Below, one piece after another: positions 25,886 through 44,003 of a stretch of DNA of 64,000 nucleotides. The DNA is from Veillonella infantium. Its GTDB lineage: Bacteria; Bacillota; Negativicutes; Veillonellales; Veillonellaceae. Below the pieces are notes generated by a model. The model was not told where the DNA came from. It searched no databases and saw only the letters and a list, made by a program, of their open reading frames with translations. Each line of letters begins with the position of its first letter. Position 1 is the first letter of the stretch. The stretch is from positions 62,001 through 126,000 of the forward strand of contig NZ_PPDD01000012.1 in assembly GCF_002959895.1 (NCBI RefSeq), written 5' to 3'. The position numbers were made by a program, and so were the translations under genes.

Positions 25886-26066
25886 AACAGAAACTATAAT
25901 TCACATTACGCTAAAATGCTGGTTCATATCTATTTTTTAATAAAAGAACTCCCTCATAAAATCCGACTTGCGGGTTCAAGGCCTATGGCCGCAGAACTAA
26001 TTCGCATGGAGGATTGTTGAGGGAGTCTTTTATTACCTTATTTTGTTGTGAATTATAGTTTCTGTT
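25886..26066. repeat. Nested palindromic element between hemQ and narK
   Basis: The outer ends are a perfect 20-base inverted repeat: AACAGAAACTATAATTCACA at 25886-25905 and its complement at 26047-26066. Inside is a second stem, TAAAAGAACTCCCTCA (25941-25956) against TGAGGGAGTCTTTTA (26018-26032), with one bulged base. The apex has further short pairings (AATCC/GGATT, GTTC/GAAC, GGCC/GGCC). On the minus strand the apex contains CTCCATGCGAATTAG (26011-25997), similar to the apical core of the elements at 43.3-43.9 kb. It lies between convergent genes and may terminate both. Confidence 0.75.
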
Positions 26067-26071
26067 ACACC

Positions 26072-27409
26072 TTATGCATTCATATTTGCACTTTTACGTA
26101 CATAGAACCAGAAGCACACAGCTACAGTTACAAGGTTGAAGGCTAACAATACAGCAAAGGCTGGATGAATATTACCGAATGTGGAATATACAAAGCCAAA
26201 GATTTTAGGTGTAATGAAGGCACCGTATGCAGCTACAGCAGCAACGAAGCCAGTAATTAAAGAGGATAACAACGGATTGCCAAATACGTGTGGAATCATA
26301 CGGAATGTTGCACCTGTTGCGAAACCACAGCATACGAATGTCAACACGGACATAGCAAAGAAGAATGGGAAGTTGTGCATATCTACACCAACTGCGATCA
26401 ATGCAGTGGTAGCACATAAGCCAATGAGGCTAACAAAAGTAACTTTTGTACCGCTGTTAATTTTGTCGGATAACCAACCACCTACAGGACGAAGAGCACC
26501 TGCTACAAGGGGACCTACGAATGCGATGGATGCAAATGGTACTTCAGGGAATTCTTTACCTACTAATAAGCCAAGTGCTGCAGCATAACCGGAGAAAGCA
26601 CCGAAGGAACATGTATATAACAATGTAAGTGCCCAAGTGTGTTTGTTACCAAAGATTTGTACAAGGTTTTTAGGATTTGGTTTTTCTAGAGGTAGGTTAT
26701 CCATGAAGCGAGTCATCAATGCAAGGATAACAACGAGTGGTACGACCCACATGAAAGCTGCATTGGCAAGATATACGGCGTTGCCTTTAATAATAGCAGG
26801 TGTTACACCAAATACGCTACCTAGTGCGGCAGAGCCCATAGCGAATGGAGCTAAGAAGTAGATTACGGAGATACCAAGGTTACCAACGCCGCCGTTGATA
26901 CCAAGGGCTGTACCTTTTTCAGATTTAGGGAAGAAGTTGCCAATGTACGCCATGGAGGACGAGAAGTTGGCGCCCGCTAAACCGATAAGGGCTGTTAAGA
27001 TCATGAATGTCGTATAAGAAGTTGTTGTATCTTGAACGGCAAAGCCAAGCCATACAACAGGAACTAATAAAATAAGTGTGGAAATAAATGTCCAGTTTTT
27101 ACCACCGATTAATGCTGGCATGTAGGTATATACAAAACGTAATGTAGCACCAACAAGACCTGGTAATGCGGCTAATGTAAATAATTGATCTGTTGTAAAG
27201 TTAAAGCCAGCGCCATTTAGTTGTGCTGCAATGGTTGCCCATAAATACCATACACAGAATGAAAGGGTTAATGCAATTGTGGATATAACCAAGTTTTGTT
27301 TAGCAATTTTTTTACCAAACTTTTCCCAAAATTCTGGATTTTCTGGTTGCCAATTAGCCACAATTTCGCTACGGCTTGCCCCTACTTGAGGCATTTTTAG
27401 TTCGCTCAT
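26072..27409 (-). CDS. narK: NarK family nitrate/nitrite transporter (MFS)
   Basis: This 445-residue inner-membrane carrier imports nitrate and/or exports nitrite for the adjacent nitrate reductase. It has about 12 hydrophobic helices, the nitrate-signature stretch GLAGANFSSSMAYIGNFFPKSEKGTALGINGGVGN (given here only as the family G-x-x-x-G-x-G-N type region, about residues 142-176), the paired arginine region GLVGATLRFVYTYM (about 88-101) and a second one in GALRPVGGWLSDK (about 303-315). The start at 27409 is preceded by AAGGAGAAG. It is divergent from the Crp/Fnr gene that leads narGHJI, so control is likely shared. Confidence 0.92.
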   Translation of the reverse strand: MSELKMPQVGASRSEIVANWQPENPEFWEKFGKKIAKQNLVISTIALTLSFCVWYLWATIAAQLNGAGFNFTTDQLFTLAALPGLVGATLRFVYTYMPALIGGKNWTFISTLILLVPVVWLGFAVQDTTTSYTTFMILTALIGLAGANFSSSMAYIGNFFPKSEKGTALGINGGVGNLGISVIYFLAPFAMGSAALGSVFGVTPAIIKGNAVYLANAAFMWVVPLVVILALMTRFMDNLPLEKPNPKNLVQIFGNKHTWALTLLYTCSFGAFSGYAAALGLLVGKEFPEVPFASIAFVGPLVAGALRPVGGWLSDKINSGTKVTFVSLIGLCATTALIAVGVDMHNFPFFFAMSVLTFVCCGFATGATFRMIPHVFGNPLLSSLITGFVAAVAAYGAFITPKIFGFVYSTFGNIHPAFAVLLAFNLVTVAVCFWFYVRKSANMNA

Positions 27410-42781: not shown

Positions 42782-43327
42782 ATGATTGATATTAAACAAA
42801 TAATTGAAACCAATAAAGAGTATGTGAAAAACCACCCAGAATTACCAAAAGCAGGATTAACAAGCCATCCTACTAAAAAACTAGGTATTGTCACATGTAT
42901 GGATACGCGTTTAGTCTGCATGCTAGAAGATGCATTAGGTTTTAACCGTGGTGAAATCATCGTTATAAAAACAGCTGGTAATAGTGTAACGCAACCTATC
43001 GATAATATTGTACAAAGCTTGCTAGTTGCTACGTATGGTATGGAAATTGAAGATGTATTAGTCATCGGCCATGAGAACTGCGGCATGATTGATTTCTCTG
43101 CTACAACTTTTATGGAGTCCATGAAAGAAAAAGGTATCAGTGAAGATGCGATTCGCATGATCGAACCAGGACTTATTGATTGGATGGATCGTTTCCACAT
43201 ATCCGAAGACAATGTAATCTATACCGTTAACTTCTTGCGTAACCACCCACTATTCCCAAAAGGAATGGGATTCTATGGAGGGATGATGGATCCTGATACA
43301 GGCGAATTCCGTTATATTGAGATTTAG
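42782..43327 (+). CDS. Beta-class carbonic anhydrase
   Basis: This 181-residue zinc enzyme interconverts CO2 and bicarbonate. Zinc ligands and the catalytic dyad are visible: C39-M-D41-T-R43, then H97-E-N-C100. TAGNSVTQP follows the first motif. The size is that of the small bacterial beta-class. AGAGGTACC lies before the ATG. Bicarbonate supply would suit PEP-carboxykinase-linked C4 metabolism, but that is inference. The promoter carries an FNR-shaped palindrome. Confidence 0.9.
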   Translation: MIDIKQIIETNKEYVKNHPELPKAGLTSHPTKKLGIVTCMDTRLVCMLEDALGFNRGEIIVIKTAGNSVTQPIDNIVQSLLVATYGMEIEDVLVIGHENCGMIDFSATTFMESMKEKGISEDAIRMIEPGLIDWMDRFHISEDNVIYTVNFLRNHPLFPKGMGFYGGMMDPDTGEFRYIEI

Positions 43328-43334
43328 TAGTGGC

Positions 43335-43473
43335 CTCGATGGGGCCCCTTTACATAACTACATTTAGGTAAAAAAGAGTGATGACTAACCTCTACGCTCC
43401 AAAGCGAGCTAAGTCGCTAATCGGTTAGTCATCACTCTTTTTATAACTGTATTTATGAACTAGTCCCATCGAG
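43335..43473. repeat. Nested palindromic element, copy 1
   Basis: The ends are CTCGATGGG (43335-43343) and CCCATCGAG (43465-43473), a perfect 9-base inverted repeat. Inside, a perfect 20-bp stem AAAAAGAGTGATGACTAACC (43371-43390) pairs with 43423-43442, ending in five T on both strands. The apex holds the 24-base core at 43395-43418, which contains CTCCAAAGCGAGCTAAGTCG. A GGGGCCCC box is at 43341-43348. It follows carbonic anhydrase and may terminate it. Confidence 0.85.
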
Positions 43474-43631
43474 TCTATTCATATATCAATAAAACGAAAT
43501 TCACTGTATCAAATAAGTAAGAGGGAGAAGTTCTCGTCCTTTTTCCTACTGTACCTATGAATTAGTCCCATCAAATCTGAATGCCATTAACGAGTTAGCG
43601 TAATTTCGCTGTATCGAGAGAGGGGAAATTA

Positions 43632-43735
43632 ATGGGGCCCCTCTACATAGCTACATTTAGATAAAAAAGAGTGATGACTAATCTCTACGCTCCAAAGCGA
43701 GCTAAGTCGCTAATCGGTTAGTCATCACTCTTTTT
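43632..43735. repeat. Nested palindromic element, copy 2
   Basis: This segment is 104 bases long, with 100 identical to 43339-43442 of copy 1. It includes the GGGGCCCC box (43634-43641), the 20-bp stem with one C-to-T change that keeps a G-T pair (43664-43683 with 43716-43735) and the identical 24-base core (43688-43711). Its right outer arm is degenerate. Confidence 0.85.
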
Positions 43736-43786
43736 CTCTTTTCTCCATATATAGCCAACCTACTATTCTCGCATTTATGGTTGTAG

Positions 43787-43936
43787 ATAGGACTATATGG
43801 GACTGTTACATAAGTACAGCCATAAAAATCACAGAACCTAGTAAAGAGCGACTTAGCTCGCTTTGGAGCGATGAGCTAGGTTCTGTGATTTTTAACAAGG
43901 CTTGCACTAATGTATGGGGGCCCCATATAGTCCTAT
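43787..43936. repeat. Nested palindromic element, copy 3 (inverted, different stems)
   Basis: The outer ends form a perfect 15-base inverted repeat (ATAGGACTATATGGG at 43787-43801, complement at 43922-43936). The inner 18-bp stem AAAAATCACAGAACCTAG (43824-43841) pairs with 43876-43893 and is unrelated in sequence to the stems of copies 1 and 2. The apex core (43847-43870) is the exact reverse complement of their 24-base core. A GGGGCCCC box is at 43917-43924. Confidence 0.85.
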
Positions 43937-44003
43937 TACGGTAAACCTTAAGCGGAATAATAGGTTGACTATATATTCCGTTTAGCTGTATATTGTAATT
44001 AGA

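What the first reader, a model, noticed from the sequence alone, without database searches (positions are those of the whole stretch)
43335..43936. Family of nested palindromic elements with an identical 24-base apical core
Three modules in 600 bases share an architecture: outer inverted repeat (9 or 15 bp), GGGGCCCC box, inner 18-20-bp stem flanked by A/T runs, and a 24-base apical core that is identical in all three. Copies 1 and 2 are near-identical, but copy 3 is inverted and has unrelated stem sequences, so the core is kept while stems change. That suggests the core is recognised by something (a protein, RNA or transposase) and that stems are kept only for pairing.
Basis: seen in the sequence. 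Interest (0 to 1): 0.72.

Follow-up and report, generated by a model that had tools for sequence, protein, structure and literature searches.

The report
Nested DNA hairpins sharing one tip
The three hairpins belong to a family in the mouth bacterium Veillonella in which one short tip sequence is shared while the long arms differ from site to site and can even contain backward copies of the end of the neighbouring gene, which suggests that these hairpins are repeatedly rebuilt by a fold-back copying process around a recognised tip.

Summary
The local-duplication refuter fails: the core occurs elsewhere in this genome and in 10 of 14 Veillonella genomes. A covariance model finds the family in 14 of 300 Negativicutes genomes: 13 of 14 Veillonella plus one of a neighbouring genus.
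The constant part is only CTCCA and A(A/T)GTCG, flanking an apical hairpin that itself changes. Inner stems differ between loci yet pair almost perfectly (covariation 0.84, shuffled 0.22). Further inverted repeats lie outside: 38 of 60 elements, 2 of 81 ordinary terminators. Some outer arms run into the upstream gene's last codons; of 624 gene ends, the four best inverted copies are all at family loci. Extra right arms lie downstream (17, against 4 left arms). Elements cluster around oriC, with copies beside dnaA.
Most likely: locus-specific palindromes remade by fold-back copying with the core as turn-round; recognition of the core is inferred, no event was observed. Main rival: a protein-bound 3'-end RNA structure. 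Y1/RAYT transposases do not track the family.

The parts
43294..43366 (+). module 1, left half outside the inner stem: includes the last codons of the carbonic anhydrase gene, outer 9-bp arm CTCGATGGG (43335-43343) and GGGGCCCC box (43341-43348)
   Evidence: pairs with 43444-43511, local alignment score 29.5; mismatched flanks of other elements: mean 12.5, 99th percentile 22.5 with longer flanks; folds as one hairpin, z -10.5
43371..43390 (+). module 1, inner stem left arm
   Evidence: 100% complementary to 43423-43442
43395..43418 (+). module 1, 24-base core: CTCCA / apical hairpin AGC-GA-GCT / AAGTCG with flanks
43423..43442 (+). module 1, inner stem right arm ending in T-run
43444..43511 (+). 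module 1, right half outside the inner stem, ending in an inverted copy of the carbonic anhydrase 3' end
   Evidence: score 18
43531..43617 (+). orphan right half (part of inner-stem right arm, joint, outer right arm, inverted gene-end copy) without its left half
   Evidence: 40-nt direct repeat with module 1, 80% (D2); a very similar sequence is the right half of a complete element in L042 and L046
43634..43735 (+). module 2: GGGGCCCC box, inner stem 43664-43681/43718-43735, core 43688-43711; outer right arm missing
43747..43976 (-). module 3, whole nested palindrome, inverted relative to modules 1-2
   Evidence: flank pairing score 35.5; RNA fold -114 kcal/mol, z -15.1
43787..43801 (.). module 3, outer 15-bp arm (partner 43922-43936)
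   Evidence: I10
43823..43894 (-). module 3, inner stem (43823-43841/43876-43894) and core 43847-43870
25942..26031 (-). another family member in the window, downstream of an MFS transporter gene (26072-27409 -); longer apical hairpin between CTCCA and AAGTCG
   Evidence: R2 match 27.9 bits, E 0.0019; found independently; outer arms 26047-26066/25886-25905 read by eye in the sequence printed; gene: PF07690
46373..46429 (+). tentative divergent member: 16-bp stem, loop with hairpin CTAC-GTGA-GTAG followed by AGTCG, no CTCCA
   Evidence: hairpin scan; not reported by R2 at E 10 (default filters), so only a lead
42782..43327 (+). upstream gene, carbonic anhydrase; its 3' end is part of the module 1 palindrome
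   Evidence: PF00484 E 5.8e-15

Best explanation
The modules belong to a family of nested palindromes in Veillonella and at least one neighbouring genus. Each locus has its own arms, while one small two-strand signal, CTCCA...A(A/T)GTCG, sits at the tip. SHOWN: the conserved signal with a variable apical region; a locus-specific, nearly perfect inner stem of about 18-21 bp; in most elements outer inverted repeats, at several loci reaching into the upstream coding sequence; orphan right halves lying downstream; clustering around oriC. INFERRED: the palindromes are made and remade by fold-back (snap-back) copying. A DNA strand turns round at the core, copies its own upstream sequence (stem, joint, sometimes the end of the gene) for tens to over a hundred bases, and rejoins at the core. 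Older right halves are thereby pushed downstream, and the left half usually pairs with the nearest right half. The core persists because it is the turn-round and is recognised as a folded strand by an unidentified factor. At many loci the inner stem also looks like an intrinsic terminator.
For: Inner stems: covariation 0.837 vs 0.215 shuffled, 0 of 500 shuffles, slid controls at most 0.152; 0.897 vs 0.196 on 98 distinct rows (alignment fitted to the model). Outer repeats: 38 of 60 elements score above 11 (flanks of different elements: mean 7.0, 99th percentile 11) vs 2 of 81 ordinary terminators (4 of 243 null pairs). Gene-end copies: among 624 gene ends in 800 kb of one genome the four best inverted copies (18-20; next 15; mean 8.7) are all at family loci. 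At etfA, 12 of 13 genomes score 15-20; of the 10 whose alignment spans the leucine codon, 8 carry the gene's own TTG or CTG in the inverted copy, and G007 also keeps an older right half with the other codon. Polarity: 17 extra right-arm copies, all downstream, 3 or 4 of them in complete second modules; 4 extra left-arm copies, 3 of them in complete modules. Same locus, swapped arms: etfA and arsC-like loci. Template switching as a maker and keeper of perfect hairpins is published (PMC8794818; abstract and passages seen).
Against: Several facts fit an RNA role better: an upstream gene ends into the element on the same strand in 42 of 60; sense-only 29 vs antisense-only 5; T-run longer than A-run 22 vs 8. 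In 22 of the 38 elements with an outer repeat, it begins 13-31 nt from the inner stem on both sides (counted); simple decay of a copied palindrome would not leave such similar unpaired joints, so selection on shape is also needed. 22 of 60 elements have no outer repeat above 11. Two of the 10 etfA copies that span the codon do not match it (G002, G003), and the 8 matches could be one shared change. Gene-end copies are weak or absent at many family loci: arsC-like 8-11 (9 of 14 genomes tested), gamma 8-10, post-gyrA 8-13, L008/L038/L043/L047 8-11, three of seven carbonic anhydrase loci 9-11. Some copies are broken or hybrid (L010, L044, L050). Two covariation measures do not beat shuffles (further pair types 169 of 500; pairs with double change 268 of 500 and types 366 of 500). 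The apical hairpin is only 73-75% paired. No copying event was observed; at etfA two arm types alternate, which suits exchange between strains as well.
Confidence: 0.38

Rival explanations
1. Structured RNA element: a 3'-end or terminator hairpin whose internal loop CTCCA/AAGTCG is bound by a protein or small molecule. All stems are kept by ordinary compensatory selection, and the element controls termination, processing or stability of the upstream mRNA.
For: Sense orientation 42 of 60, sense-only 29 vs 5; T-run longer than A-run 22 vs 8, T-run of at least 4 in 28 of 60 (mechanical ORFs of 80 aa or more). Conserved internal loop beside a covarying helix. Very stable RNA fold.
Against: The outer right arm lies beyond the T-run, so it would be missing from terminated transcripts. 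Copies beside dnaA lie upstream of dnaA without T-runs. G.U pairs are not commoner than A.C mismatches (14 vs 42 overall), but ordinary terminators here are similar (12 vs 9), so that test is inconclusive. It does not by itself explain orphan right halves or inverted gene ends.
Confidence: 0.32
2. Miniature mobile element (MITE or REP-like) that inserts at gene ends and whose transposase is unknown or elsewhere.
For: Dispersed copies, inverted pairs, presence/absence differences at the same locus (e.g. metF locus in G000).
Against: Copies share no arms or ends, only the tip, whereas transposons share their ends. No precise empty site was noticed at the three loci compared; target duplications were not searched. 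0 exact matches to the core pattern in viral contigs. Y1_Tnp does not track the family.
Confidence: 0.12
3. Chromosome-architecture or replication site: hairpin or cruciform sites around the origin used by a nucleoid, segregation or replication factor.
For: 13 of 13 listed sites within 375 kb of oriC in G012 (P 1.2e-6 if uniform); four other complete genomes P 2e-3 to 1e-5. Two or more copies within 2 kb upstream of dnaA in 7 of the 8 genomes where dnaA was located, one copy in the eighth. 9 vs 1 in equal 400-kb samples of origin and terminus halves.
Against: Loci are partly shared by descent, so the genomes are not independent; the 35% window was chosen after seeing positions. Orientation follows replication only weakly (51 of 76). 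ParB is present in 20 of 20 genomes searched and a pair of parS-like sites lies near it, so the usual system is not replaced. Copies far from the origin exist (905 kb in G012; 582 kb in G009).
Confidence: 0.12
4. Assembly artefact or chance palindromes.
For: None found.
Against: Same loci in complete single-contig genomes and many drafts.
Confidence: 0.01

Closest known systems
Template-switch-generated hairpins (PMC8794818; abstract and passages seen)
   Same: One event makes a perfect reverse-complement stem; later events restore pairing and replace arms in blocks
   Different: A general mutation process; the passages seen mention no conserved sequence at the tip. Here one signal recurs at the tip at unrelated loci, with polar orphan right halves and copied gene ends
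REP / GTAG and CGTC palindromic repeats (PMC3733652; abstract and passages seen)
   Same: Short extragenic palindromes, often in inverted pairs
   Different: REPs share their stem sequence and an end tag, GTAG ones being linked to RAYT genes; here stems are unique per locus, only the tip is shared, no Y1 transposase tracks it; 'Veillonella' occurs 0 times in that paper's main text
Intrinsic (Rho-independent) terminators
   Same: Inner stem often flanked by A-run and T-run downstream of a gene
   Different: Large conserved tip, outer repeats (38 of 60 vs 2 of 81), copies near dnaA without T-run
Integron attC sites (recalled, no call)
   Same: Recognised as folded single strands; structure conserved more than sequence
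   Different: attC keeps its outer box sequences and varies the tip; here the signal is near the tip and the outer arms vary
Palindromic elements of organelle genomes, e.g. Volvox (PMC2670323; search listing with start of abstract only)
   Same: Many palindromes in intergenic DNA
   Different: Called selfish repeats there; whether any share a tip with unique arms was not checked

Membership tests
REP/RAYT system | Y1 (RAYT-type) transposase present with the repeats | tested here: not met
   PF01797: 0 hits in G007, G001, G014, which have 14, 9, 11 elements; 14 hits in G006, which has 0
REP/RAYT system | stem sequence shared between copies | tested here: not met
   52 stem clusters below 70% left-arm identity among 105 distinct elements
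MITE | shared terminal inverted repeats | tested here: not met
   outer arms are locus-specific; one subgroup shares only GATGGGGCCC/GTCCCATC at the inner end of the outer arms
MITE | target-site duplication | not tested
   no systematic search made
Intrinsic terminator | hairpin followed by T-run at gene end | tested here: inconclusive
   T-run of at least 4 in 28 of 60; upstream gene end in 42 of 60; runs of 1-3 at the dnaA copies listed
Known RNA family (Rfam 15) | match at gathering score | tested here: not met
   0 matches in the window
Structured element (any) | covarying helices | tested here: met
   inner stem; the apical helix is weaker (73-75% of cells paired)
Chromosomal parS/ParB site | 16-bp TGTTTCACGTGAAACA-type palindrome | tested here: not met
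   core and stems differ; ParB and a parS-like pair occur separately; parS consensus recalled
Integron attC | conserved outer R boxes and integrase | tested here: inconclusive
   invariant columns of A1 lie only in the core; integrase not searched
Template-switch hairpins | reverse-complement copy of adjacent sequence created in one event | tested here: inconclusive
   best inverted gene-end copies are at family loci, polarity; no event dated on a tree

The most novel reading that the evidence does not exclude
A dedicated fold-back writing system: a host factor recognises the folded core and makes strand synthesis turn round there, so that neighbouring sequence, including the last codons of a gene, is written back as an inverted copy. 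This could be DNA snap-back synthesis, or self-primed copying of the terminated mRNA by a reverse transcriptase (neither enzyme was searched for). Serial events leave a polar record of past left halves, concentrated around the replication origin.
Probability: 0.15. Interest if true: 0.92.

Novelty: categorically new. Interest (0 to 1): 0.74.

Why it matters
Perfect long stems that change wholesale between close species are an old puzzle of hairpin evolution. Here the tip is constant, the arms are particular to each locus, and past arms remain as orphan halves, so the making of hairpins can be read as a series of events in a genus with complete genomes. If the core proves to be a recognised turn-round signal, it would be a new way in which bacteria rewrite DNA beside genes, and its crowding at oriC would link it to replication. 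If it proves to be an RNA signal, it is a genus-wide 3'-end motif that we did not find in Rfam (window only) or in the titles and abstract starts listed by our literature searches.

Tried and rejected
RAYT/Y1 transposase: rejected by distribution. Phage origin: the core pattern has 0 exact matches in viral contigs. Substitute for ParABS: rejected, ParB in 20 of 20 genomes. Rfam: no match in the window. A fixed 20-24-base core: rejected, since the middle varies. G.U versus A.C asymmetry as a test of RNA versus DNA: 14 vs 42, but many A.C cases sit at one fixed place about 8 nt from CTCC, and ordinary terminators give 12 vs 9, so uninformative. Strict origin-only location: rejected by copies at 905 kb and 582 kb. 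Model R2 with default filters did not list the 905-kb copy at E 10 and scored it 33.1 bits with filters off, so counts from the model are lower bounds. The library lacks most subscription papers.

Dropped or selected rows: from 105 distinct elements, similar left arms were collapsed to 60; several of the 60 are different arm types of one orthologous locus, so they are not independent. Two of the 60 are doubtful (L191 - 479, L021 - 1735) and were kept. In one search, 76 positions from the listings were typed in; one search counts 86 matches in those five genomes, but its listing was cut, so the weakest are missing. The 35% window was chosen after seeing the positions. In one search the largest null score (112) exceeds every observed one; I did not look up that pair, which may join two copies of one locus. 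In one search the arsC-like gene (117 aa) fell below the ORF cut-off of 120 aa, and the post-gyrA family gene does not appear among the 30 best.

Full report
THE OBSERVATION. The three modules are as described, except that module 2 lacks an outer right arm. The 24-base core is identical in all three, and the inner stems are 20, 18 and 19 bp. The stretches around modules 1 and 3 fold as single nested hairpins of 218 and 230 nt, far below shuffles (z -10.5 as DNA; -15.1 as RNA). Between modules 1 and 2 lies an orphan right half (43531-43617), very similar to part of a complete element in other genomes (L042, L046).

NOT A LOCAL DUPLICATION. The core with up to 3 mismatches occurs 8 times in the window's genome, control 0. 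A degenerate core has 0 to 12 matches at up to 3 mismatches in the 14 Veillonella genomes held, control 0 to 2, some of the 3-mismatch ones lying in genes. At 2 mismatches it is present in 10 of the 14 and in none of 14 genomes of three other genera of the family. An exact-pattern scan of the species-genome collection gave 20 stretches: 18 in Veillonella and two isolated ones that I take for chance; viral contigs gave none.

WHAT IS CONSTANT AND WHAT VARIES. An alignment of 21 inner hairpins gave a 16-bp stem in which every pair has changes on both sides (93.5% of cells paired; covariation of the whole structure 0.837 against 0.215 in shuffles and at most 0.152 when slid). Two further measures, which only count pairs or pair types, do not separate from shuffles or hardly do (further types 169 of 500, 366 of 500; pairs with double change 2 of 500 and 268 of 500). 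A covariance model built on the alignment found more distant members. These show that the core is really CTCCA plus A(A/T)GTCG around a variable apical part, often a hairpin: AGC-GA-GCT, TAGT-GA-ACTA, TAGT-AA-ACTA, TGAC-GA-GTCA, TACG-ACG-CGTA, or long inserts such as AAGC-(23 nt)-GCT. As a fixed four-pair helix the apical part is 73-75% paired. In G001 two members have CTTC with AAGGCG in place of CTCC with AAGTCG, but three members elsewhere have CTTC with AAGTCG (L010, L021, L171), so a pairing between these positions is not established.

DISTRIBUTION. Model R2 matches 17 of 28 family genomes: 13 of 14 Veillonella, the one genome of genus g2 (11 hits), and three of seven genomes of genus g4 with 1, 2 and 2 hits (the single one weak, E 0.04); 0 of 6 in g3. 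In 300 Negativicutes genomes, with stricter filters, 14 match: 13 Veillonella and G014. Within the five complete genomes the listed sites lie around dnaA: 13 of 13, 10 of 11, 9 of 11, 13 of 14 and 10 of 12 within the 35% of the chromosome centred on oriC, a window chosen after seeing the positions (dnaA). Two or more copies lie within 2 kb upstream of dnaA in 7 of the 8 genomes where dnaA was located, and one in the eighth; the gene on the other side reads as rpmH by eye in G000 and G012, and the copies read there have no T-run. An independent motif-plus-stem scan of equal 400-kb samples of G012 found 9 near the origin and 1 near the terminus; three control motifs gave 0 to 2 in either half. 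Hairpins in general are less skewed (long-loop 21 vs 19, short-loop 33 vs 23).

A LARGER NESTED PALINDROME. Beyond the inner stem and an unpaired joint there is often another inverted repeat. Among 60 collapsed elements, 38 have an outer repeat scoring above 11; flanks taken from different elements have mean 7.0, 99th percentile 11 and maximum 14. Ordinary terminators of G012 do so in 2 of 81. Several arms run on into coding sequence: the ends of etfA, leuD, carbonic anhydrase (this window) and others are repeated inverted downstream. Scanning 624 gene ends in 800 kb of G012, the four highest scores for an inverted copy of the gene end (20, 19, 18, 18; the next is 15; mean 8.7) are all at family loci. 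Other family loci show no clear copy: arsC-like 8-11, gamma 8-10, post-gyrA 8-13, part of the carbonic anhydrase and L008-type loci 8-11. At etfA 12 of 13 genomes score 15-20. Of the 10 alignments that span the leucine codon, 8 carry the codon of the gene itself (3 TTG, 5 CTG) and 2 do not (G002, G003); by parsimony the 8 may reflect a single joint change. In G007 an older right half keeps the CTG form while the gene now has TTG.

POLARITY. At the etfA locus the hairpin next to the gene is followed in several genomes by right halves of other arm types, which begin at or within the core and end in an inverted gene-end copy (read). Over all elements, 17 additional right-arm copies were found within 900 nt, all downstream; 3 or 4 belong to complete second modules and the others lack a matching left arm. 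Only 4 additional left-arm copies were found, 3 of them in complete second modules.

HOW IT MOST LIKELY WORKS. Copying that turns round at the core explains the centring of the core, the near-perfect inner stem, the wholesale change of arms at one locus, the inverted gene ends and the orphan right halves. Template switching is a published source of perfect hairpins (PMC8794818). What is special here is a shared signal at the turn-round. I infer, without direct evidence, that this signal is recognised when folded. The similar joint lengths (22 of 38 outer repeats begin 13-31 nt from the inner stem on both sides) and the sense orientation (42 of 60; sense-only 29 vs antisense-only 5) show that selection, perhaps at the RNA level, also acts, so the rival RNA reading stays serious. 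The G.U/A.C test does not decide. Exchange of alleles between strains must also be involved where arm types alternate.

KNOWN KINDS. It is not a REP/RAYT system by the two features tested. It does not share ends as MITEs do. It is more than an intrinsic terminator. ParABS is present separately. GTAG/CGTC repeats (PMC3733652) were described without mention of Veillonella in the main text. I therefore rate it as a new kind, with the reservation that the literature held is incomplete and its function is not established.

LIMITS. Orthologous loci are not independent, so the probabilities apply per genome, not jointly, and rest on a cut list. Model counts are lower bounds. The 60 elements were found with a CTCC/GTCG motif plus stem, so they cannot test that motif itself. 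The outer-repeat test was thought of after seeing the flanks, but its controls (and the gene-end scan) were run on other sequence.

Noticed in passing
G012 around 883292, 888548, 1073663 (L221, L231): A second set of similar hairpins in the terminus half: stems with GGTTCCTA/TAGGAACC and varying loops with TGACC or GGTCA.
   Followed up: no
L042:1850-4260 (G008): About 2.4 kb with two ORFs (251 and 455 aa, no Pfam match over the curated cut-off) lies between modules 2 and 3 at the carbonic anhydrase-bioD locus; in G000, G007, G010 and G012 the modules lie within about 650 nt.
   Followed up: partly
e.g. L018, L104, L110, L208, L007: A C.A mismatch (C in the 5' arm, A in the 3' arm) recurs about 8 nt from CTCC in otherwise well-paired stems of different sequence.
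   Followed up: partly
upstream of orphan right halves: Purine-rich tracts (such as AGAGAGAAGGGAAA at etfA) precede many orphan right halves.
   Followed up: no
L017 (G011): The outer arms reach the start codons of two divergent ORFs, which both begin Met-Lys-His-Tyr.
   Followed up: no
L112, L124 (G003): One Veillonella genome has, at the etfA and arsC-like loci, hairpins with another recurring tip (ACGCTTAACG...CTACG-AATTC) in place of CTCCA/AAGTCG.
   Followed up: no
G012 2133260-2133375 (L249): Two TGTTTCACGTGAAACA sites (parS-like, consensus recalled) about 1.3 kb from parB.
   Followed up: no
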